This document shows positions 18,140 through 48,872 of a DNA stretch of 64,000 nt, in pieces. How positions within the stretch are numbered: the stretch's first letter is position 1; each line of letters opens with the position of its first letter. Position numbers and translations under genes: made by a program. The notes below the pieces were generated by a model, which saw nothing but the letters and a program-made list of their open reading frames with translations, was not told where the DNA came from and made no database searches. Source of the DNA: Phyllobacterium sp. YR531 (GTDB taxonomy: Bacteria; Pseudomonadota; Alphaproteobacteria; Rhizobiales; Rhizobiaceae); contig NZ_AKIZ01000013.1 of NCBI RefSeq assembly GCF_000282595.1, positions 124,001 to 188,000 on the forward strand, given 5' to 3'.

Positions 18140-18163
18140 TAATTATTGACCAGAGCAGTTTTT

Positions 18164-18451
18164 ATGAGTAAGTTTGAATGGGATGAGGAAAAGGCAAAAC
18201 GCAATCTGCGCAAGCACGGTGTGGCTTTTGAAATACTGGACCAATTTGAATTTGATACCGCGATCGAGTGGATTGATGATCGATACGATTATGGCGAAGA
18301 ACGGATAATCGCGACGGCATTCGCCGGAAACAAGCTTTATAGACTTGTTTACACAATGCGAGGTTTTGCCCCACGGGCTATTTCTTTGCGGGAGGCCAAT
18401 CGAAAGGAGGTAGATGAGTATGTGCGCGCAAAAAAACAGAACATGGACTAA
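18164..18451 (+). CDS. brnT: BrnT family toxin (type II toxin-antitoxin)
   Basis: A 95-residue RelE-fold ribonuclease toxin of the BrnT family (DUF497), a family first characterised in Brucella abortus. The beginning, FEWDEEKAKRNLRKHGVAFE, and the end, RAISLREANRKEVDEY, are diagnostic. They include the basic residues and the Arg-Ile-Ile segment (EERIIATAF) tied to RNA cleavage. The ATG at 18164 is preferred over an upstream TTG because family proteins begin at this point. The antitoxin gene overlaps its 3' end by 32 bases, ensuring co-expression. Confidence 0.93.
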   Translation: MSKFEWDEEKAKRNLRKHGVAFEILDQFEFDTAIEWIDDRYDYGEERIIATAFAGNKLYRLVYTMRGFAPRAISLREANRKEVDEYVRAKKQNMD

Positions 18452-18731
18452 TGCAGAGCTTATTGAACGCGCGTTGGCTTACCGCGCAACGATAACTGAT
18501 GAACAGGATGCGGCCATCACCAAGGCTGCCATGGAAGACCCTGATACGGTTCTGGCTGATGTTTTGACCAAGCGTCGCCCCGGCCGTCCTGTTGCCGATG
18601 CGCCAAAGAAACCTGTCTCCATTCGCCTCAGCCCTGATGTGCTGGATTACTACCGCTCGACCGGCCCCGGCTGGCAAGGCCGCATTGATGAGACCTTGCG
18701 GGATGCTGCTGGCCTGAAAAAGCGGGCGTGA
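18420..18731 (+). CDS. brnA: BrnA family antitoxin
   Basis: A 103-residue antitoxin. The C-terminal half, KKPVSIRLSPDVLDYYRSTGPGWQGRIDETLRDA, is the conserved BrnA DNA-binding and dimerisation region. The N-terminal half should wrap and block BrnT. AAAGGAGG ends at 18410, giving a nine-base spacing to the ATG at 18420 and only three to the ATG at 18414, so 18420 is favoured. The gene overlaps brnT and is followed by a gap with a hairpin before ffh. Confidence 0.92.
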   Translation: MCAQKNRTWTNAELIERALAYRATITDEQDAAITKAAMEDPDTVLADVLTKRRPGRPVADAPKKPVSIRLSPDVLDYYRSTGPGWQGRIDETLRDAAGLKKRA

Positions 18732-21355: not shown

Positions 21356-21500
21356 AGCTATAGATTCAGAGTTTAGATAACCGACAAAATATTTTACCAC
21401 GCCCGCGAAGGCTACAATCCAAAAGACGAGACTATGGGTCGAATTTTGTGCCACCTTTGATAGCAGCGCCACGTTTTGAAAGATAAATTGCAAAACAGCA

Positions 21501-21642
21501 GTGCGTGGTTCGCCCTTAGACAAACTCAGGAGGGCTCACCATGAGGAAAGTCGTGACCGGCCATGTAGTTGCGAGGTGGCAAATCACCTCATTTCTGCGG
21601 TACACCCATCTTCCTCATGGTGAGCCTCGTCGAACCACGCAC
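21501..21642. repeat. Dispersed palindromic repeat, copy 2
   Basis: The left arm starts GTGCGTGGTTCGCCC at 21501 and reaches CTCACCATGAGG. The right arm (about 21613-21642) reads CCTCATGGTGAGCCTCGTCG and then AACCACGCAC. It is the same family as 2433-2555, with a variant left arm that matches the copy at 33239. It lies at the boundary between the core rpsP operon and the accessory segment. Confidence 0.8.
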
Positions 21643-21858
21643 TACTGTTTTGCAGATACATTTACGAATGGCGGAAAACCGAAAGAATTTATACTTAGGC
21701 ACCCCCACCAAACCGCCTTTCAATTCTCAATCCACCTGTCATGATTGCCTGTGTCATCGGGCGCGCCAAAAATTCATGCGGGAAGCCGAGGTCTATTTTG
21801 CTCGCCTCCTCCAGTCGTTGCCGCTGAGCTTGTCCAGAACAACGCACCGAGATTTTCT

Positions 21859-23067
21859 TCAAGCTGCCATCTCCCGAACTCTTCGACGTGAAACATACCT
21901 GTAAAAGGCAGCTGCAAAAATGAGTCCGCCCAAGGCCAGCCCCAGGGCAACAATCGGTAGCCCGTTCTGGTCAACCGCCGCGCCGATAATGGTCGCGGAT
22001 ATTGCCATTCCTCCAAACGCACAACCGTAAAAAATCACCATCAGGCATGGAACATCATCCATCTTTGATCGCGTCAGAATGCTGTTCATCGACATCATGA
22101 AAATGATTTCAAAAACCATCATGAAAAGAAAATAAAACAGAAAACTGACGGTGACTGATCTGGTCGCGAATGGTGTGCATAGCAAGACCAGAGCGCAGAA
22201 AAATACCGTTGGAATATTCCAGTTGAGGCCTTTTGTGCCAGTCAGAAACCTGCTCACGAAGGCCAAGCCCGACACGACCCCGAGAACGCCGACAACTTCG
22301 CTTATGGCGCCTGAGGATGCCGGCAGTTGAAGCCATGCCAAAGGTATCCATAAACGCGCAACCTGGTTGAAACCCTGAAGAATAATGACGGTTGCAACCA
22401 GATATCCCATGGCTTCGAGTAACGCTGCGTCAGACAGCAAAGCATCACGTCCGCGCCGCCAGAGCGCCGCGTAACCGCCTTCGGCACTTTTGATGGCAGC
22501 GCGCCACGGAAGAAGGACGCACAGACCCGCCGACAGGACAAAGGTTACAGCATTGATGCTCGCAATCGACATCATGGGTTGTCTGGCAATAAGGAGGAAA
22601 CCGAGAAGCGCCCCAAATGCCTGCCCGGCATAGGAGGCAGCACTGATCATATTGTTCGCCCGCCCGATACTCTCTGGCAGAGCATACTGCTTGGTGGCGA
22701 CATTTCTTGCAGCTTTCGTGGTCATGTCAAAAAAGCCGCGTGCAAATATCAGCGCATATGCCAGCCAGAGATAACCACCGGCGACGGTCGCTCCCACCAG
22801 AATTGTCAGCAGTGCCGCTACCAACTCCAGTGATACAAGGGCCGTTCGCAGCGGCAAGCGATCGCAAATCCTCCACGCGAGCGGCATGAAAATGATGACC
22901 GGGGTAAACTGTGCAACATAAACACCAGCCGCGCCTAAGGCCGATCCGTTCAACTGAAAGAAATGAACTGACAAAGCAACGAGAATAAGATTCGTACCAA
23001 TCGAGCTGGCAAACATTGATAAAATTAACAGTCTAACCGGAGATATCTCCTTCAGGCCAAGCACCAT
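21859..23067 (-). CDS. MFS permease of the SHMT-like/ATP-grasp cassette
   Basis: A 402-residue inner-membrane protein with about 12 helices, belonging to the major facilitator superfamily. The loop ICDRLPLRTALVSLE after helix 2 is the degenerate MFS motif A. It is the last gene of a four-gene minus-strand operon, 14 bases after the ATP-grasp ligase, so it most likely exports the product or imports a precursor. Direction of transport is inferred from the layout of known dipeptide clusters such as bac. The start at 23067 has only a weak ribosome binding site. Confidence 0.82.
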   Translation of the reverse strand: MVLGLKEISPVRLLILSMFASSIGTNLILVALSVHFFQLNGSALGAAGVYVAQFTPVIIFMPLAWRICDRLPLRTALVSLELVAALLTILVGATVAGGYLWLAYALIFARGFFDMTTKAARNVATKQYALPESIGRANNMISAASYAGQAFGALLGFLLIARQPMMSIASINAVTFVLSAGLCVLLPWRAAIKSAEGGYAALWRRGRDALLSDAALLEAMGYLVATVIILQGFNQVARLWIPLAWLQLPASSGAISEVVGVLGVVSGLAFVSRFLTGTKGLNWNIPTVFFCALVLLCTPFATRSVTVSFLFYFLFMMVFEIIFMMSMNSILTRSKMDDVPCLMVIFYGCAFGGMAISATIIGAAVDQNGLPIVALGLALGGLIFAAAFYRYVSRRRVREMAA

Positions 23068-23081
23068 TCTTCACAAACTCT

Positions 23082-24341
23082 CTATCGAATAAGGGGAATA
23101 CCAATAGCCACTTCAAATCTGTCGAGCAGTTCGTCGGCAATCACGCCTGCATCATCAAGTGAGTTTCGACGGATTTGATAGCGGGCCAGAACCTGATTTG
23201 CCTTTACCTCTTGTCCAGGACGCAGAGCGTAGGGATCGAAATGTATGAGCCCCTCGGTTGCAGCGGCCCAACTCACATCAATCTGGCCTGCAAGTTGTCC
23301 GTTGTTACGCGGCATGAGCTTTCGTGATGTGATGAAATCACGCACATCAAGCTCAGGCGCTTCGACAGGTAGATCGAGATGGATATTGATCAGGTGTTTG
23401 GAGATATCGTCGCTGGTTAGATGCTTGTACATGCCGGGCATGACCCCTCCCATCAGTCGGGGATTGACCTCGACAAGCGTCGGACCCCGCTTTGTCAGAA
23501 TCATCTCTATGTGGAATATGCCTATATCCAACCCCAAAGCAGTCACGACACTCTCGGCATAAAAAAAGCACTCTTCGCGCAACTCGCTGGAGATATCCGC
23601 CGGCATTGTTGCGCCCATTTCGATACATTCGTTTTCCTTGGATCGGGGACGCCCGGAAACCATAAAACGATAGAATTTCCCGTCTTTCACACCCAGTTCG
23701 ACAGAAACGAGCTCGCCTACCAGCAGCTCCTCCACAAGCACGCCTTTTTGCAGTTGTGAATGTATCTGCCGTGGTGTGTCCTTGATGCCGTTCAATAGCG
23801 CATTCGTTGCAGACGCTGCCTGCTCGGGGGAATGAGCTGGGTATGCCAACAGGCTATCGTAGCCCGTCTGAGGTTTGACAATGACAGGGCAGCCAAATTC
23901 TGCAGTCACCTGCGCCGCTTCGTCCGGCGTAGAGACGATCCTGCAACGCGCAGATCTGATGCCGACTGCCTCGATAAGCTCACGCGCCTTTGCCTTATCC
24001 CTGGCATTTGCTACAGCGCGCGCATTTGTAAATCTGATGCCAAGATCGGCACAGGCTTGTGCAACGACATCCACACAAGCCTCCAACTGAGTAATCACAC
24101 CATCTACTGGCAACAAATTGTGAATGGCAGACATCGCCTTTTTGACCTGATCCAGACTTGTCGGATCATCAATCGAAATCACATTGGCAACGCCATACAC
24201 TGTCCTGATCACGTTTTCCGTTACGGTGTAAAGGCGATAATTGGAGCGTATGAACGAAACAATTATGCCAGCGTCCGAGGCATTTTGAATAGTGTCGAAT
24301 CCCGGCACATTTGAATCAACGATCAGAAGATGCTTGCTCAT
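23082..24341 (-). CDS. ATP-grasp carboxylate-amine ligase
   Basis: A 419-residue ATP-grasp enzyme. It has an N-terminal Rossmann-like part (HLLIVDSNVPGFDTI) and a central part with CPVIVKPQTGYDSLL (ATP lysine and glycine-rich loop). FHIEMILTKRGPTLVEVNPRLMGG carries the metal-binding Glu and Asn residues. This layout is that of the L-amino-acid ligases (BacD-like) and related enzymes that join a carboxylate to an amine through an acyl phosphate. Its ribosome binding site GGAGG overlaps the 3' end of the preceding gene, so translation is coupled. The substrates cannot be inferred. Confidence 0.88.
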   Translation of the reverse strand: MSKHLLIVDSNVPGFDTIQNASDAGIIVSFIRSNYRLYTVTENVIRTVYGVANVISIDDPTSLDQVKKAMSAIHNLLPVDGVITQLEACVDVVAQACADLGIRFTNARAVANARDKAKARELIEAVGIRSARCRIVSTPDEAAQVTAEFGCPVIVKPQTGYDSLLAYPAHSPEQAASATNALLNGIKDTPRQIHSQLQKGVLVEELLVGELVSVELGVKDGKFYRFMVSGRPRSKENECIEMGATMPADISSELREECFFYAESVVTALGLDIGIFHIEMILTKRGPTLVEVNPRLMGGVMPGMYKHLTSDDISKHLINIHLDLPVEAPELDVRDFITSRKLMPRNNGQLAGQIDVSWAAATEGLIHFDPYALRPGQEVKANQVLARYQIRRNSLDDAGVIADELLDRFEVAIGIPLIR

Positions 24342-24347
24342 GATGCT

Positions 24348-24752
24348 CTATCCTCCATGCATGGCGAGTTCGCACTGAATCGCTTGCAGCTGAACATTGG
24401 CCCTGACGCTTGACTGAATACTCAGAACGGCATCACTCACCCGCTTGAAGAATTGTGGAAGCAGGGTTTCGTTCGATTCTGCCTGTTCAATCTGACCAAG
24501 AACCCCGATCAGGAGAACAGCACAGTTCAAATCTGCCTGTGCGCAAAATAAAAGCGACCCTGCTTCTGTTGGTTCCTCAACGAGAAAGGCATCCTCCGAG
24601 CTGAGGTTGGGGATTACCTCATAAGCAACCAGCAATCGCTGTCGAATGGTGCTGTAATCCTCAGACGTGTGCAAACGCCCGTTAATCGCCAAATAGGGCG
24701 TACGGGAATGGGTTTTGAGCCAAACCCGGGAACCATCGGCTTTCTCATACAT
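24348..24752 (-). CDS. Unknown 134-residue protein of the cassette
   Basis: No family is recognised. The protein is acidic and soluble, with no signal or membrane segment. Its N-terminal half (YEKADGSRVWLKTHSRTPYLAING) could form beta strands, and the C-terminal half looks helical. The start was taken at 24752 because AAGGAT precedes it and it lies ten bases after the SHMT-like stop; an in-frame extension upstream would overlap that gene. Being locked between an SHMT-like enzyme and an ATP-grasp ligase, it may be an accessory or carrier-like partner, but nothing in the sequence proves this. Confidence 0.65.
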   Translation of the reverse strand: MYEKADGSRVWLKTHSRTPYLAINGRLHTSEDYSTIRQRLLVAYEVIPNLSSEDAFLVEEPTEAGSLLFCAQADLNCAVLLIGVLGQIEQAESNETLLPQFFKRVSDAVLSIQSSVRANVQLQAIQCELAMHGG

Positions 24753-24762
24753 GGCAGTATCC

Positions 24763-26055
24763 TTAATGAGGATAAATCGGGAAGCTCCGCGATAGCTCTT
24801 TGACTGCGATGAGTGTTTCCGGTGTGGAAGCATCTGCACCGCGCGCGCCGGACACAACCTTGTCCAGCACGTCGGATAAAAGACCCGCAATTATGTCGGC
24901 CTCTTCTGTTTTCATGCCTCTTGTCGTGATGGCGGACGTGCCGATACGCAGGCCTGATGTAATGTTCGGCTTTTCAGGATCGTATGGAACAAGATTTCGA
25001 TTACATGTCAGTCCGGCGGCTTCCAATGCTTCCTGCGCAATGTCGCCGGTCACTCGTTTGGCACGAAGATCGATCATGACAAGTGGCGTGTCGGTCCCGC
25101 CCGTTACAATTTCATATCCCCGTTTTTGAAGACCAGCCGCTATCGTTCTCGCATTGGCCAGAACATGCCGGGCATATTCAGAAAACTCCGAATCCAGAGC
25201 CTCTCCGAAACATACTGCTTTTGCCGTTATCATTTCAGGAAGGGGACCACCCTGTATTCCCGGGAACACTGCTGAATCAATCAACTTGCCCAGATCCGCA
25301 TCTCTTGAAAGTATCAGACCGCCTCTGGGACCACGGAGATTTTTGTTTGTGGTCGTGGTGATGATGTCGACATGGGGAAAGGGATGAGAATACTGGCCGC
25401 CAACAATCAATCCAGAAAAATGCGCAACATCGGCAAGAACCTTCGCACCAACACTTTTTGCAATGGATGCTACTTTCTCAAATTCAATTGTGCGGGGATA
25501 TGATGAGCCACCCACTATGATCAGTTTTGGCCGATGCTGCAGGGCCTGCTCCTGCATGTCTTCATAATCAATTAGCCCTGCGGTATCTGTCCTGTAGAAA
25601 ACGGTTTTGAACCATTTGCCTGACAGGTTTGATTTCTGGCCATGACTCAAATGTCCGCCGGCTGACAGTTCCATGCTTAGTACCGTGTCTCCCAACTGCA
25701 GGAGAGCAAAATAGATGGCCTGGTTTGCTTGCGTTCCGGAATGGGGTTGGACATTGGCGTGCCCCGCATTGAACATGGCCCTTGCTCTGGCAATGGCAAT
25801 ACGTTCGATTTCATCAATATTGCCTACCCCAGCATGATATCTGCGACCCGGATAGCCCTCGACGGAGGTGAACGCCATCATCGATGCAACCGCCTGTCTG
25901 CTAGCCACACTCAAATAATTCTTCGGGGCGATAAGCTCGATCTGATCCTGTTGCCGCCCTTCCTCACTTCTGACTGAGCGACTTATCGCCGGGTCGACTT
26001 GGTCCAGGGATTTTATAAAAAACGGCAGGGAAGGCTGCAAATTGCGCAAATGCAT
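24763..26055 (-). CDS. Divergent serine hydroxymethyltransferase-like PLP enzyme
   Basis: A 430-residue fold-type I PLP enzyme related to GlyA. The PLP lysine is K238 in TTTTNKNLRGPRGG, and the substrate carboxylate arginine is in TSGLRIGTSAITTRGM. Compared with standard GlyA, the usual TTTTHK is TTTTNK, the ASEN box is APKN, the Tyr two before EGYPG is Ser (TSVEGYPG), RYYGG is RYHAG, and GGPLMH is GGPLPE. These positions lie in the amino-acid and folate pocket, so it may act on another substrate (transaldolase, aldolase or alpha-methylserine type). GGAG eight bases upstream fixes the start at 26055. It is first in the operon. Confidence 0.88.
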   Translation of the reverse strand: MHLRNLQPSLPFFIKSLDQVDPAISRSVRSEEGRQQDQIELIAPKNYLSVASRQAVASMMAFTSVEGYPGRRYHAGVGNIDEIERIAIARARAMFNAGHANVQPHSGTQANQAIYFALLQLGDTVLSMELSAGGHLSHGQKSNLSGKWFKTVFYRTDTAGLIDYEDMQEQALQHRPKLIIVGGSSYPRTIEFEKVASIAKSVGAKVLADVAHFSGLIVGGQYSHPFPHVDIITTTTNKNLRGPRGGLILSRDADLGKLIDSAVFPGIQGGPLPEMITAKAVCFGEALDSEFSEYARHVLANARTIAAGLQKRGYEIVTGGTDTPLVMIDLRAKRVTGDIAQEALEAAGLTCNRNLVPYDPEKPNITSGLRIGTSAITTRGMKTEEADIIAGLLSDVLDKVVSGARGADASTPETLIAVKELSRSFPIYPH

Positions 26056-26333
26056 ATCAATATCTCCGAACAAAAATCAGCCAGAGTGCTCTTTAAATAT
26101 CGGTCGTCGTTTTAAAAATTTTAATATCAGTATCGCTACAATTGCATATGATTATGTATAATTACAACCAGACATACAGGTAAAGCATACTTTAAAAGCA
26201 CGTGGACAGGAAATAAATTCCATTATAAGGCATTTGCAGATACTATTTTCTATTTGTTTGCAAATATAACTTTTTAAATTAGCCGGGTAAATTATTTTTC
26301 ACGGCGGCTTTTATCGCGAAAGATGCAGCCATA
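26056..26333. other. AT-rich spacer with the cassette promoter
   Basis: About 280 bases, strikingly richer in A and T than the surrounding genes. No gene is seen. It must contain the minus-strand promoter of the SHMT-like operon, but no single -35/-10 pair stands out. The abrupt change in composition fits acquired DNA. Confidence 0.6.
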
Positions 26334-26588
26334 TTAAACCGAAAAGCGTTGGCGGTAGGTTTGGGGATTGGTGCCCAAGCTTCGCATGAATGCCCGGCGC
26401 ATGGTCTCTTCCGATCCAAAGCCGCAGCGCCGCGAAACGCGGGCAACTGTCAGCCCTTCCTCCAGCAGGCGGCGGGCGGTTTCAATCCGGATATCTTCGA
26501 TGGCGCGGGCTGGTGTCCGCCCGGTTTTCTGTCGGTAATGGCGCGAGAAACTGCGCGGGCTCATATGCACCTGCGCAGCCAGCACCTG
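26334..26588 (-). pseudogene. Truncated 3' copy of the GlxA-type regulator gene
   Basis: The last 80 or so codons of an AraC-type helix-turn-helix domain (MSPRSFSRHYRQKTGRTPARA ... NPQTYRQRFSV). They match almost residue for residue the C-terminus of the complete regulator 1005 bases further on (27339-28292). The DNA copies differ at roughly ten or more sites, mostly third positions, so this is a diverged allele and not a fresh duplication. The DJ-1-like N-terminal two thirds are missing. Homology ends near 26588. It is best read as a remnant left by insertion or recombination. Confidence 0.85.
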
Positions 26589-26689
26589 AGTTCAACAGTT
26601 TGATCATGCGTATTCAACTAAGGTCTGGGTTATCCGATTACGCAAGTGAATATACATTTCAGCGGCATGTAATTTAGGGTGCGATTATA

Positions 26690-26926
26690 TTGAGCCGAAT
26701 CTGGATAGTGCTATGCGCATCGAGCGCAATTATAAATATTCTGGCGCTGACATCGCCACTTTTCATGTTGCAGGTCTATGACCGCATGCTGACCTTCCAT
26801 TTTGATTCCAGCACCCATCGCACAACCATGGCAGAAGGTTTGACAACTGTGGGCAGTCTTTTCTCTAGGACTCCTTACGCGATCGATATCCCAGATTCTA
26901 TTCCCGTCTCATGGAGTGGTGATTAA
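26690..26926 (+). pseudogene. Remnant of a type I secretion ABC transporter N-terminus
   Basis: The first 35 or so residues (IINILALTSPLFMLQVYDRML) match the conserved N-terminal membrane segment of PrtD/HlyB-type secretion ATPases. After this the sequence loses resemblance and stops at 78 residues, where a full gene has over 550. It opens with TTG and has no clear ribosome binding site. It is probably a decayed fragment brought in with the accessory DNA. Confidence 0.6.
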
Positions 26927-27294
26927 TGTTAAAATGTATTGCAATAGGTTTCGGCACTTTCGTTGCCATTATATTTATCATTGTCGGCGCGCTTTTTTTC
27001 AAGCCTTTATGGTACACTGTACCACAATGTGGTGACACTCCCATCGAGACCGTGAGAGCCGACATACTCTCCGTCGTTTCTCGACCGGGGTTCTTCAAGT
27101 ATATTGACGCTGAATATGACGGTTTCGAGCCTGTTGAAGATATCGGTTATACCGATCCAGCAACGCTTTGGTCCCAGACTTTTTATGTGACCAAATCTGG
27201 GCGGAAAATCGCTAGAATTTTCGGAATGCTAATATGTGACGGATCATTCGAGATGTCTGTAGATCAAACATTTATACCGGAGCCGCCAAAGTAA
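26926..27294 (+). CDS. Small membrane-anchored protein, unknown function
   Basis: 122 residues: an N-terminal membrane helix (about 5-27, IAIGFGTFVAIIFIIVGALFF), then a soluble domain with two cysteines and many aromatics, probably periplasmic. GGAG lies nine bases before the ATG. AT-rich codon use is unlike the flanking core genes. No family is recognised. It sits between the secretion remnant and the intact GlxA-type regulator gene, inside the region bounded by the two araC 3' ends. Confidence 0.6.
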   Translation: MLKCIAIGFGTFVAIIFIIVGALFFKPLWYTVPQCGDTPIETVRADILSVVSRPGFFKYIDAEYDGFEPVEDIGYTDPATLWSQTFYVTKSGRKIARIFGMLICDGSFEMSVDQTFIPEPPK

Positions 27295-27338
27295 TTATCA
27301 ATCACGGCTTATAAAACTATACAGTGCCAACGCAAAAC

Positions 27339-28292
27339 TTAGACCGAAAAGCGTTGGCGGTAGGTTTGGGGATTGGTGCCCAAGCTTCGCATGAATGCGC
27401 GGCGCATGGTCTCTTCCGATCCAAAGCCGCAGCGCCGCGAAACGCGGGCAACTGTCAGCCCCTCTTCCAGCAGGCGGCGGGCTGTTTCAATCCGTATATC
27501 TTCGATGGCGCGGGCTGGTGTCCGCCCGGTTTTCTGCCGGTAATGGCGCGAGAAACTGCGCGGACTCATGCATGCCTGCTCAGCCAGTACCTCAAGCGAT
27601 AGTGTCTTGCTCAAGTTCTCCATGATCCAGCCATGAAGTCGGTCGAAATGCCGGTCGCCCTCCTGCAGGGTCAGTGCAGCGCTGAACTGCGTCTGTCCAC
27701 CGGGGCGCTTGAGGAACACCACGAGCTGCCTTGCGACAGCCAGCGCCATATCGCGCCCGAGATCTGCTTCCACCAGCGCAAGTGCCAGATCAATTCCAGC
27801 TGTCACACCTGCTGATGTCCAGATATTGCCATCCTGCACAAAGATCGGGTCCGGATCGAGGAGCACCAGAGGGTAGCGTTTGGCGAATTCATCACAGCGC
27901 TGCCAGTGTGTCACCGCCCGCTTTCCATTCAGCAACCCCGTTTCAGCCAGAAGCAGGGCCCCGCTGCAAACCGAGGCAGTGCGCCCTGCCAGCTTGGCAC
28001 GATCCTTCACCCATTTAACCAGCGTCACATTTTCGCAAGCAGCATTGACGCCTCGCCCACCCGCCACGATCAGCGTATCGGGAATACTTTCATTGCCCGG
28101 CAAAGGCACCGCCGTCAGCTCCAACCCGGATGTGGTGAGTACGGGTGTCTTCTCGGCCATGACCACCATTTGATAAGGCAGCGCAATGCCCTTGGCTGCG
28201 GCTAGATCATTGGCCGAGGCAAAAACCTGCAAAGGCCCTGCCACATCCAGCAGCTGGGCCTGATCAAAGGTCAATATCTCGATACGGCGCAT
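27339..28292 (-). CDS. GlxA-type transcriptional regulator (DJ-1/PfpI plus AraC HTH)
   Basis: A 317-residue regulator. An N-terminal DJ-1/PfpI-like sensor (about 1-190) includes VAGGRGVNAACEN and SVCSGALLLAETGLLNGKRAVTHW, which retains the nucleophile-like Cys. An AraC-type double helix-turn-helix occupies the last 100 residues. Such proteins often control the adjacent divergent gene, here the DJ-1-like hydratase 84 bases away. The start at 28292 gives the usual MRRIEILTFDQAQLLDVAGP opening; a longer reading of 14 residues exists. Confidence 0.9.
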   Translation of the reverse strand: MRRIEILTFDQAQLLDVAGPLQVFASANDLAAAKGIALPYQMVVMAEKTPVLTTSGLELTAVPLPGNESIPDTLIVAGGRGVNAACENVTLVKWVKDRAKLAGRTASVCSGALLLAETGLLNGKRAVTHWQRCDEFAKRYPLVLLDPDPIFVQDGNIWTSAGVTAGIDLALALVEADLGRDMALAVARQLVVFLKRPGGQTQFSAALTLQEGDRHFDRLHGWIMENLSKTLSLEVLAEQACMSPRSFSRHYRQKTGRTPARAIEDIRIETARRLLEEGLTVARVSRRCGFGSEETMRRAFMRSLGTNPQTYRQRFSV

Positions 28293-28376
28293 GGCACTTG
28301 GCTTGAAACGAGGGTTGATTGGCAATCTTGCCAAGTTCTATTCCTGTACATTGCCAGCGTCAACAGGAGTACCCTT

Positions 28377-29042
28377 ATGCCCTTAACCTTTGGAATACTC
28401 GCATTTCCCCGCGTTCAACAACTCGACCTCACGGGCCCCTATGAGGTGTTTGCATCAGCCCCTGACACACAGGTTCACCTTATCTGGAAGGATCTCGAGC
28501 CCTTGACGTCCGCGACCGGCCTCAAGCTGACCCCCACAATGACGTTCAAGGACTGTCCGCAACTTGATGTCATTTGCGTTCCCGGTGGCGGCGGTATCAA
28601 CGCGTTACTGCGCGACGAAGAGGTGCTGGCATTTATCCGCAAGCAGGCGGATCAAGCGCGCTTCATCACCTCCGTTTGCACCGGATCTTTGGTGCTTGGT
28701 GCAGCAGGCCTGCTCAAGGGCAAGCGTGCGGCAACCCATTGGAACGCGTTGGATTTTCTGCCGCATTTCGGTGCAATCCCCGTTGAGGAACGTGTCGTGC
28801 AGGATGGCAATCTGATTACAGCGGGCGGTGTAACATCAGGAATAGATTTCGGCCTGACTGTACTGGCAGAATTGATCGGGCAGACAGAAGCGGAGATTGT
28901 CCAGCTATCGCTGGAATATGCGCCAGCCCCTCCGTTCAAATCGGGAACGCCGAAGGAAGCATCTGCAGAGATTCTGGCGCATGCCAGACAGCGCCTTGCG
29001 AAAGCCCGCACTGAACGAGAAGCGATCCTTGGTCTAGGCTGA
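28377..29042 (+). CDS. DJ-1/PfpI family protein, isonitrile hydratase-like
   Basis: 221 residues of the DJ-1/PfpI superfamily. The nucleophile elbow SVCTGSLVLGAAGLLKGKRAATHW and the N-terminal LTGPYEVF closely resemble Pseudomonas isonitrile hydratase (InhA), which hydrates isonitriles to N-formamides. The Cys of VCTGS would be the nucleophile. Whether the substrate is conserved is unknown; related proteins are annotated only as DJ-1-like. It diverges from the GlxA-type regulator and overlaps the stop of the TetR gene by nine bases. Confidence 0.8.
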   Translation: MPLTFGILAFPRVQQLDLTGPYEVFASAPDTQVHLIWKDLEPLTSATGLKLTPTMTFKDCPQLDVICVPGGGGINALLRDEEVLAFIRKQADQARFITSVCTGSLVLGAAGLLKGKRAATHWNALDFLPHFGAIPVEERVVQDGNLITAGGVTSGIDFGLTVLAELIGQTEAEIVQLSLEYAPAPPFKSGTPKEASAEILAHARQRLAKARTEREAILGLG

Positions 29043-29639
29043 AACCAGTTCATCCCACGCGGCCATGGCCGCGCGGGCAGTCTTGGTCAGCTGCTCCAAT
29101 GTCGCTCCATCGCGTGCGGTGATCGACATGCCATGCTGTACGGTGACATAGAACTCAGCCACCTGCTGGAGATCGACGGCGTCCGCAATCTCGCCATCGC
29201 GTACCCCGCGCTCCAGTCGCCCGCGCAACAGCTCCACATTGTCCAACCTGCGATCCCGCAGCAAAGCGCACGGCGTGTTCTCCGCATCATCTCCATGCAG
29301 GGCGCCCAGGACCACCATGCAGCCATGCGGCTGGTCAGGGCTGGTATGCGAGATGGCGGTTTGCATCAGAAAATCGGCAATGCCTTCCTTGGCGGTGACC
29401 GCATTCGGGAGCGAGTTCTTGATGCGTTGCCCTACCTTGCCCGTGTAAAGCGCCACCGCCTCCCTGAACAGATCGGCCTTGCTGCCGAATGCAGCGTACA
29501 GGCTGGGCGCGTTGATCTGCATCGCAGCGGTAAGATCCGCCATCGAAGCGCTATCATAACCCTTTTTCCAGAATATCCACATGGCGCGTTCCAGCGCCGC
29601 ATCACGGTCGAATGCACGCGGACGACCTTTCGAAGACAT
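29034..29639 (-). CDS. TetR/AcrR family repressor
   Basis: 201 residues. The N-terminal HTH is clear (RDAALERAMWIFWKKGYDSASMADL, then INAPSLYAAFGSKADLF). The C-terminal ligand domain is of the type seen in regulators of short-chain dehydrogenases. It is divergent from the SDR gene, and a pair of mirror-image operators lies between them. It probably represses both genes and is released by an unknown small molecule. Confidence 0.92.
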   Translation of the reverse strand: MSSKGRPRAFDRDAALERAMWIFWKKGYDSASMADLTAAMQINAPSLYAAFGSKADLFREAVALYTGKVGQRIKNSLPNAVTAKEGIADFLMQTAISHTSPDQPHGCMVVLGALHGDDAENTPCALLRDRRLDNVELLRGRLERGVRDGEIADAVDLQQVAEFYVTVQHGMSITARDGATLEQLTKTARAAMAAWDELVSA

Positions 29640-48164: not shown

Positions 48165-48872
48165 TCAGGCCTTCAGTAATTCGAGTAATGCTGTCTCATC
48201 CGGTAAGCTCGCAGTGGCAATGTAGCCAAATCCCTGTCCGGAAACGACCGCCGCGATACCATCAGAAAGGCATAAAAACTCTGTTTTTTCAAATAGGTAT
48301 TGAATTTGAGTTTGCCTTATTGCCCCCATCAGGGCTTCAGCGCCTTTTGTTGAATATAATAGGCATGCATCAACGAGAAACCGCTTTAACAGGGCAACCA
48401 AATAATCGGTTTCGTAACTCTTCAAAATCGTGTCATAGACCGCAATCGATGTAACGGCGCGGCCAGTCCGACCAACGATATCCTCGAATTTGGATGATCT
48501 CACACGTCCGGTGAGATACAGCAAATGGGTTTTTACGGGTGTTGAACTGTTGACTTTACCTGCCAGTGATATGCCATCACCATTTCCTGTATTGACCTTT
48601 TTGAAACCTGTACTCCGCGCAATTTCTGCTGTTGTTTCGCCGACAACAAAACACGGCAAGTGGTAAAGTGGTGTCAGAATTTCCCTTGGGGCATGCCGCA
48701 ACGCATTGGCGCTGGTAATTGCCACGGCATCAAATTTTCCACTCGGCGCTTTCACGTACAACGGCTGAATTTCGGTCAGCGGCAAAATGATTGGGTTGAA
48801 ACCCCGGGCGGACAACCGTTTGGCCGTTCTGGTTGCGCCGGGCTCAGGCCGTGTAACCAAAACAGTCTTCAT
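48165..48872 (-). CDS. hemD: Uroporphyrinogen-III synthase
   Basis: A 235-residue enzyme closing hydroxymethylbilane to uroporphyrinogen III with inversion of ring D. The family is poorly conserved. Recognition rests on LVTRPEPGATRTAKRLSARGFNPIILPLTEI, AITSANALRH and the position directly after hemC (2-base gap). Length is normal. Confidence 0.9.
   Translation of the reverse strand: MKTVLVTRPEPGATRTAKRLSARGFNPIILPLTEIQPLYVKAPSGKFDAVAITSANALRHAPREILTPLYHLPCFVVGETTAEIARSTGFKKVNTGNGDGISLAGKVNSSTPVKTHLLYLTGRVRSSKFEDIVGRTGRAVTSIAVYDTILKSYETDYLVALLKRFLVDACLLYSTKGAEALMGAIRQTQIQYLFEKTEFLCLSDGIAAVVSGQGFGYIATASLPDETALLELLKA

What the first reader, a model, noticed from the sequence alone, without database searches (positions are those of the whole stretch)
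21859..26055. Four-gene SHMT-like / unknown / ATP-grasp / MFS operon, possibly an undescribed small-molecule cassette
Seen: four minus-strand genes with gaps of 10, 6 and 14 bases, one ribosome binding site overlapping the preceding stop, in a segment bounded by a repeat and an AT-rich spacer. Known: ATP-grasp ligases of the BacD type form dipeptides, SHMT-like PLP enzymes make beta-hydroxy or alpha-substituted amino acids, and both occur with an MFS exporter in peptide antibiotic clusters such as bacilysin. Inference: this operon makes and exports a modified amino acid, dipeptide or amide. No known cluster with this exact set is recognised, and the 134-residue protein is unassigned.
Basis: partly seen in the sequence, partly recalled or inferred. 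Interest (0 to 1): 0.78.

Follow-up and report, generated by a model that had tools for sequence, protein, structure and literature searches.

The report
Amino-acid coupling and export cassette
A block of four genes, apparently gained from elsewhere, probably makes an unusual amino acid, couples it to a second small molecule and exports the product; two of the genes have their nearest kin in legume-nodule bacteria, where in two cases the related genes carry nitrogen-fixation switches.

Summary
The four genes are real, tightly packed and exactly where stated, in an islet of about 7.7 kb that six fetched relatives lack at this site. The SHMT-like enzyme is not the housekeeping GlyA (a separate gene, 48% identical). 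It belongs to a fully supported clade with changed active-site positions, three of which are also changed in the methylserine-type SHMT of TRIS degradation; other members were seen only in three rhizobia. The 134-residue protein belongs to a small family otherwise found only in genera of legume symbionts: 14 loci in a pattern scan of about 85,000 species genomes, and 11 plasmid records. In Sinorhizobium meliloti AK83 and Rhizobium sullae the SHMT-like gene stands with the 134-residue gene behind a NifA/RpoN-type promoter, and a second clade member (86% identical in AK83) lies on the same plasmid with importers, peptidase or purU genes: the make-it/eat-it layout of rhizopines. The window operon has neither feature, but has an ATP-grasp/MFS pair. 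Best reading: synthesis of an alpha-hydroxymethyl-type amino acid, ATP-dependent coupling, export. The four-gene set was found nowhere else and the product is unknown. New variant of a known kind; the link to a candidate amino-acid rhizopine is the interesting part.

The parts
24763..26055 (-). SHMT-like PLP enzyme of a separate clade (APKN for ASEN, S/T for the Tyr of KYAE, RYHAG, TTNK), first gene of the operon
   Evidence: PF00464 432 bits; 48% to own GlyA; 61-64% to the AK83, R. sullae and M. carmichaelinearum genes compared; clade support 100/100 in a 14-row tree
24348..24752 (-). 134-aa protein (P134), unassigned; predicted beta-alpha-beta(3)-alpha-beta fold
   Evidence: no Pfam or NCBIfam hit; other homologues found only in genera of legume symbionts; model pLDDT 72.5, no clear PDB match
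23082..24341 (-). ATP-grasp ligase of the L-amino-acid-ligase / BacD fold group, unknown substrates
   Evidence: ATP-grasp_4; BacD and BL00235 in PDB at 4e-12 and 4e-10; nearest full relative 38%
21859..23067 (-). MFS permease, likely exporter, last gene
   Evidence: PF07690 just over, TIGR00900 below its cut-off; 33% to the MFS beside the nearest ATP-grasp relative in L020
26056..26330 (-). AT-rich upstream region; no NifA/RpoN pair; one sigma-70-like match at 26291-26263, no better than chance
21358..29052 (.). islet without counterpart at the same site in six fetched relatives; holds the operon, a partial and an intact GlxA-type regulator gene and small ORFs (outer limits from blastn pieces)
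26334..26587 (-). partial copy of the 3' end of the regulator gene at 27339-28334 (254 bp, 94%)

Best explanation
A horizontally gained biosynthesis-and-export cassette. Proposed steps: (1) the SHMT-like enzyme moves a one-carbon unit between methylene-tetrahydrofolate and the alpha carbon of an amino acid, giving an alpha-hydroxymethyl-type, alpha,alpha-disubstituted amino acid (for example alpha-methylserine from D-alanine); (2) the ATP-grasp enzyme activates a carboxylate as acyl phosphate and couples it to the amine of a second amino acid, giving a dipeptide or amide; (3) the 134-aa protein assists one of these steps (role unknown); (4) the MFS protein exports the product. Shown: genes, operon form, separate SHMT clade with intact PLP lysine and changed positions, ligase family, frequent presence of ATP-grasp and amino-acid-tailoring genes near the 134-aa family. 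Inferred: every reaction, the order, the product and its release. Probable role: a mediator or nutrient-like compound; in two rhizobia the related synthesis genes have NifA/RpoN-type promoters and share their plasmid with uptake and breakdown genes.
For: Tight four-gene unit and islet. Second SHMT beside a normal GlyA. Clade-wide APKN for ASEN, S or T for the Tyr of KYAE, RYH for RYY, TTNK for TTHK, PLP lysine kept; the last three positions are also changed (T, H, T) in the TRIS-pathway mSHMT, proposed to act on 2-hydroxymethylserine (PMC10848231, abstract and passages seen). In R. sullae a clade member is followed by purU, as purU also lies in the mSHMT operons of Teo1 and in an Ensifer adhaerens one, pointing to folate-dependent one-carbon transfer. 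ATP-grasp of the L-amino-acid-ligase group. ATP-grasp and related MFS genes adjacent in L020 (38% and 33%) and on Tistrella pTM3 (35% and 27%). Of 22 loci with the 134-aa gene outside the window (8 of the 11 plasmid records, all 14 genome loci), 13 hold an ATP-grasp relative or its remnant, 10 a KamA relative (two weak), 3 the SHMT-like gene (several loci are cut by contig ends and L030/L041 and L038/L039 are near-duplicates).
Against: No product known. None of the 22 loci has a relative of this MFS at E 1e-6. The ATP-grasp near the 134-aa gene in L028, L030 and L034 is only 24-27% identical to the window's. The SHMT clade does not group with the mSHMTs in the tree, so the shared changes may be parallel. 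APKN removes a Ser and a Glu kept by the other eight rows, so the substrate may differ altogether. Within the searches run, the full set is in one genome only.
Confidence: 0.5

Rival explanations
1. A dipeptide or amide antibiotic cassette of the bacilysin / dapdiamide kind: the SHMT-like enzyme makes a warhead amino acid (beta-hydroxy or transaldol type), the ligase couples it, the MFS gives self-protection.
For: Ligase matches BacD and dapdiamide synthase models (46 and 55 bits). Related ATP-grasp genes on Pantoea and Klebsiella plasmids stand with oxygenase-type genes, MFS and LysE exporters. Export gene in the operon.
Against: Those ligase models are far below their cut-offs of 850 and 840. 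Fluorothreonine-transaldolase model 102 of 650 bits. No oxygenase or other warhead gene in the operon. The SHMT clade's nearest kin were seen in rhizobia, two of them behind NifA/RpoN-type promoters.
Confidence: 0.25
2. A catabolic or salvage operon: the SHMT-like enzyme cleaves an imported alpha-substituted serine and the MFS is an importer.
For: The AK83 and R. sullae second copies lie with ABC importers, peptidase or purU genes; SHMT reactions are reversible (general knowledge).
Against: The window operon has no peptidase, ABC importer, purU or folD, and it has an ATP-consuming ligase; the 134-aa gene accompanies the synthesis-side copies in AK83 and R. sullae and was not seen in the stretches read around the uptake-side copies.
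Confidence: 0.12
3. A metabolite supply or modifying operon of primary metabolism (extra SHMT for one-carbon supply, ligase for peptidoglycan or cofactor).
For: The SHMT and ATP-grasp superfamilies serve mostly primary metabolism (general knowledge).
Against: Own GlyA present; separate clade with altered active site; ATP-grasp gene in 1 of 20 held genus genomes, its own, i.e. accessory.
Confidence: 0.08

Closest known systems
Synthesis block of S. meliloti AK83 pSINME01 (NC_015597) and R. sullae pWSM1592_3 (NZ_CP104146)
   Same: SHMT-like enzyme of the same clade (62-63%) and the 134-aa protein (36-38%) within 4 kb
   Different: NifA UAS plus RpoN-type promoter, a Ddl-like ligase, DapF; LysA and ornithine-cyclodeaminase-like genes beside it in AK83 and elsewhere on the plasmid in R. 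sullae; AK83 has an ATP-grasp of another subfamily (27%); no relative of the MFS found; a second clade SHMT in an uptake block on the same plasmid
Mesorhizobium carmichaelinearum locus (L040)
   Same: 134-aa gene followed by SHMT-like gene, 64%; nearest SHMT in the tree, support 81/64
   Different: order reversed, followed by a threonine-synthase-like PLP enzyme, no ATP-grasp or MFS relative found in the 14.4 kb held, no NifA/RpoN pair at the SHMT start
Methylserine / 2-hydroxymethylserine SHMT (mSHMT) of the TRIS pathway, P. hunanensis Teo1
   Same: changed at the KYAE Tyr, at the second Tyr of RYY (H in both) and at the His of TTHK; LSHG
   Different: keeps ASEN; separate branch in the tree; catabolic operon with dsdA, folD, purU
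BacD (alanine-anticapsin ligase) and BL00235 L-amino-acid ligase
   Same: ATP-grasp ligase fold, E 4e-12 and 4e-10
   Different: BacD model far below its curated cut-off; no other bac-type gene in the operon
Rhizopine systems (mos/moc)
   Same: for AK83 and R. sullae only: NifA-type promoter on synthesis genes, uptake/breakdown genes on the same plasmid
   Different: the rhizopines in the passages seen are inositol derivatives; the window operon lacks the NifA site and a second clade SHMT
HiVir and pgb clusters of Pantoea ananatis
   Same: HiVir: ATP-grasp and MFS genes; pgb: glyA and MFS genes (PMC9933511, two passages seen)
   Different: larger clusters with many further genes, of which only these kinds are shared with the operon

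Membership tests
Housekeeping SHMT (GlyA) | SHMT fold family with PLP lysine in TTT-K | tested here: met
   PF00464 432 bits; lysine kept
Housekeeping SHMT (GlyA) | only or main SHMT gene of the genome | tested here: not met
   another gene, 48% identical, at G000:C38:16379-17647
Housekeeping SHMT (GlyA) | ASEN, KYAEGYPG, RYYGG, TTHK residues | tested here: not met
   APKN, SVEGYPG, RYHAG, TTNK
Methylserine SHMT (mSHMT) | active-site pattern KT[VL]E, RFH, TTTK | tested here: inconclusive
   changed at the same positions, only partly to the same residues
Methylserine SHMT (mSHMT) | groups with known mSHMT in a tree | tested here: not met
   six-row clade 100/100 apart from the Teo1 and E. adhaerens rows (14 rows)
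Methylserine SHMT (mSHMT) | activity on alpha-methylserine or 2-hydroxymethylserine | not testable with these tools
   needs enzyme assay
Fluorothreonine transaldolase | TIGR04506 cut-off 650 bits | tested here: not met
   101.9 bits
BacD-type alanine-anticapsin ligase | NF053745 cut-off 850 bits | tested here: not met
   46 bits
L-amino-acid ligase group of ATP-grasp enzymes | ATP-grasp domain with relatives among solved L-amino-acid ligases | tested here: met
   ATP-grasp_4 53.8 bits, cut-off 27; 3wo1, 3vot, 30vh
L-amino-acid ligase group of ATP-grasp enzymes | forms a dipeptide or amide | not testable with these tools
   needs enzyme assay
Rhizopine system | synthesis genes under NifA control | tested here: not met
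   no UAS + -24/-12 pair at the window operon (the only pair in the window is a 9-of-12 match at 48576); sequence-level sites present in AK83 and R. sullae relatives
Rhizopine system | linked uptake/catabolism genes for the same compound | tested here: inconclusive
   own genome has no second member of the SHMT clade; other catabolic genes not searched; candidates present in AK83 and R. sullae
Rhizopine system | host forms nitrogen-fixing nodules | tested here: not met
   no nifH or nodC over cut-off in the 99.91% complete genome
Known fold for the 134-aa protein | clear structural match in the PDB | tested here: inconclusive

The most novel reading that the evidence does not exclude
The SHMT-like clade and the 134-aa family mark a second, amino-acid-based chemical class of rhizopine: an alpha-hydroxymethyl amino acid, probably amide-coupled, made in nodules under NifA control and eaten by free-living kin through a closely related SHMT (86% in AK83) working backwards. 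The window operon is a free-standing branch that makes and exports a related compound in a bacterium without nodulation genes.
Probability: 0.25. Interest if true: 0.85.

Novelty: new variant of a known kind. Interest (0 to 1): 0.6.

Why it matters
The rhizopines named in the passages seen here are inositol derivatives. If the AK83 and R. sullae blocks are what they look like, nodule bacteria also feed their kin with an unusual amino acid made by a modified SHMT, and the window operon offers a compact four-gene version for finding the product. Independently, a separate SHMT clade with changed active-site positions and a new small-protein family that recurs beside ATP-grasp and KamA genes are concrete targets for enzymology.

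Tried and rejected
Rejected: sole housekeeping GlyA; BacD, dapdiamide synthase and fluorothreonine transaldolase membership (all far below cut-off); host as a nodulating strain.

Literature: ten searches (lists capped at 8-15 rows). By titles and abstract starts, none of the listed papers treats this SHMT clade, the 134-aa family or an amino-acid rhizopine; 'rhizolotine' had no hit. Only open-licence PMC papers are in that library. One table passage (PMC8305402) lists an ATP-grasp gene of the P. phymatum symbiotic plasmid as up-regulated in a nifA mutant, i.e. not NifA-activated; its kinship to these genes was not tested. Nodule formation efficiency (nfe) genes came to mind as a NifA-driven plasmid parallel; the first 50 kb of pRmeGR4b was listed without them, so this stays recall. 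Host species: no 16S found in the assembly (whose control rang in 9 of 14 genomes); the genus has 20 held genomes of about 4.5-6.4 Mb; the name was not established.
Full report
Observation. The four minus-strand genes at 21859-26055 are as described, with gaps of 10, 6 and 14 bases. The operon region has 50-52% G+C against 58-59% at 18.5-21 kb and 54-60% beyond 28.5 kb, although 17.5-19 kb is also low at 49-51%. A 254-bp direct repeat of 94% identity, a partial copy of a regulator gene's 3' end, lies upstream. All 19 genus genomes searched hold the rpsP region. In the six whose matching site was fetched, the window segment from about 21.36 to 29.04 kb has no counterpart there, apart from short repeat pieces (21501-21655) that map elsewhere; in one, the two sides lie 15 bases apart, the others carry other DNA there and one also lacks the next gene. 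The operon is therefore accessory. The ATP-grasp gene occurs in 1 of 20 held genomes of the genus, the window's own.

Families. Pfam and NCBIfam give SHMT, ATP-grasp_4 and MFS, and nothing for the 134-residue protein. The ligase is nearest to solved L-amino-acid ligases, BacD first, but the 25 curated models shown of 40 matched are all below their cut-offs. The genome has a separate GlyA, 48% identical to the window SHMT.

The 134-residue protein. tblastn against 72,556 plasmid records found 11 records, all of Sinorhizobium, Rhizobium, Bradyrhizobium, Mesorhizobium or Microvirga; eight were read. A pattern scan of 84,980 species genomes with an alignment of nine members gave 14 loci out of 46 pattern stretches: Mesorhizobium 5, Microvirga 5, Rhizobium 2, Bradyrhizobium 2. 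That these strains nodulate is recalled, not tested. Of these 22 loci, 13 hold an ATP-grasp relative or remnant, 10 a KamA relative (two weak), 3 the SHMT-like gene and none a relative of the MFS; contig ends and near-duplicate strains make these counts rough. In six Microvirga records a truncated 134-aa gene is followed closely by the C-terminal part of an ATP-grasp gene (33-39% to the window's). In L042 and L047, read gene by gene, this remnant lies beside genes that I read as nifS, nifU or nifV and fixA and fixB, with an rpoN gene in L047 (names from recall). The predicted fold is a small alpha-beta one of moderate confidence with no clear match.

The SHMT clade. Window, AK83 (two genes), R. 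sullae (two genes used) and M. carmichaelinearum form one clade with 100/100 support in a tree of 14 rows. Identities to the window are 61-64% for the four clade members compared, against 47-51% for the four others. The clade has APKN for ASEN, S or T for the Tyr of KYAE, RYH for RYY and TTNK for TTHK, and keeps the PLP lysine. That the replaced residues contact substrate in ordinary SHMTs is recalled. The mSHMT of Pseudomonas hunanensis Teo1, proposed to convert 2-hydroxymethylserine in TRIS degradation (PMC10848231, abstract and passages), and an Ensifer adhaerens gene followed by folD and purU are changed at the last three of these positions (T, H, T), but form their own branch and keep ASEN. 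The parallel supports, but does not prove, an alpha-substituted substrate.

Rhizobial context. In AK83 and R. sullae the SHMT-like gene is followed by a Ddl-like ligase (in AK83 157 bits, below the 243 required) and the 134-aa gene within 4 kb. Upstream of it lies TGT-N10-ACA followed 90 or 114 bases later by a -24/-12 element matching 11 or 10 of 12 positions and starting 55-56 bases before the annotated start codon. R. sullae has this pair before both tandem copies. AK83 has a 12-of-12 pair 0.3 kb before its annotated ATP-grasp start, with a reading frame start that resembles NifH (from recall; no family hit for the 49-residue piece). Mononucleotide shuffles of three loci gave 3 pairs of 10 or more in 11 Mb. 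The real loci gave 21 rows at 9 or more, among them sites before the fixA-like genes of Microvirga L042 and L047, as expected; the only one in the window is at 48576, far from the operon. On the same AK83 plasmid a second SHMT, 86% identical to the first, follows an ehuBCD-annotated amino-acid importer and precedes a peptide importer and a C69-type dipeptidase (57 bits, cut-off 250). In R. sullae the matching SHMT is followed by purU, and the importer lies 2.9 kb away behind an insertion element. No NifA-type pair precedes the AK83 uptake copy. In rhizopine systems NifA-controlled synthesis genes and moc breakdown genes typically occur together (PMC10107442, introduction passage). The layout is the same; the chemistry would be new. 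No other plasmid record covers 80% of either AK83 block: R. sullae covers 40% and 42%, and S. meliloti NZ_CP021827, which also has a 134-aa gene, covers 57% of the uptake block, without the SHMT.

What the window operon does. It lacks the NifA site, a second clade SHMT and a nodulating host, but has a full ligase and an MFS gene. I conclude, at 0.5, synthesis of an unusual, probably alpha-hydroxymethyl-type amino acid, coupling by the ATP-grasp enzyme and export. Every reaction is inferred.

Against this reading: the four genes occur together only here among the genomes searched; no relative of the MFS was found in the 22 loci with the 134-aa gene; the ligases near the 134-aa gene in L028, L030 and L034 are only 24-27% identical; NifA-type promoters were found at 2 of the 3 rhizobial SHMT/134-aa loci and not directly before the 134-aa genes; and the APKN change is of unknown effect. 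An antibiotic dipeptide remains the main rival (0.25).

Noticed in passing
window 18146-18731, + strand: Two small overlapping ORFs (101 and 105 aa) that look like a BrnT/BrnA toxin-antitoxin pair by recall; no family search was run.
   Followed up: no
window 21501-21655: Short intergenic repeat whose pieces also occur elsewhere near the same site in four of six relatives (L078, L081, L082, L083), probably a genus-wide repeat.
   Followed up: no
L028 11169-11420 (AK83 plasmid): A perfect NifA/RpoN-type promoter with a NifH-like start in front of an ATP-grasp gene looks like a captured nifH promoter; DNA related to this block recurs at 2-9 places in the Sinorhizobium plasmid records listed.
   Followed up: partly
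L030, L032, L034, L039, L041, L043, L044, L046: A KamA (lysine 2,3-aminomutase-type) gene beside or near the 134-aa gene, in several with an ATP-grasp gene, near fix-type genes in L030: a second, beta-amino-acid version of the rhizobial loci.
   Followed up: partly
L035, L042, L047-L050 (Microvirga): The same kind of truncated 134-aa/ATP-grasp remnant is kept in six Microvirga records, beside nif genes in the two that were read.
   Followed up: partly
L029 4283-5601 (R. sullae plasmid): A first tandem SHMT copy is split over two frames while the second is intact; both have the same NifA/RpoN-type promoter.
   Followed up: partly
   Followed up: no
L017, L018 (Pantoea, Klebsiella plasmids): Shared cluster annotated as octopine/nopaline-dehydrogenase family, phytanoyl-CoA dioxygenase family, DapH-related, SDR, ATP-grasp, MFS and LysE genes.
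   Followed up: no
L037 45-8774 (Mesorhizobium tamadayense): Near the 134-aa gene: kinase-like, cysteine-synthase-like, ATP-grasp/lyase fusion (926 aa), aldolase-like and oxygenase-like ORFs, read from recall.
   Followed up: no
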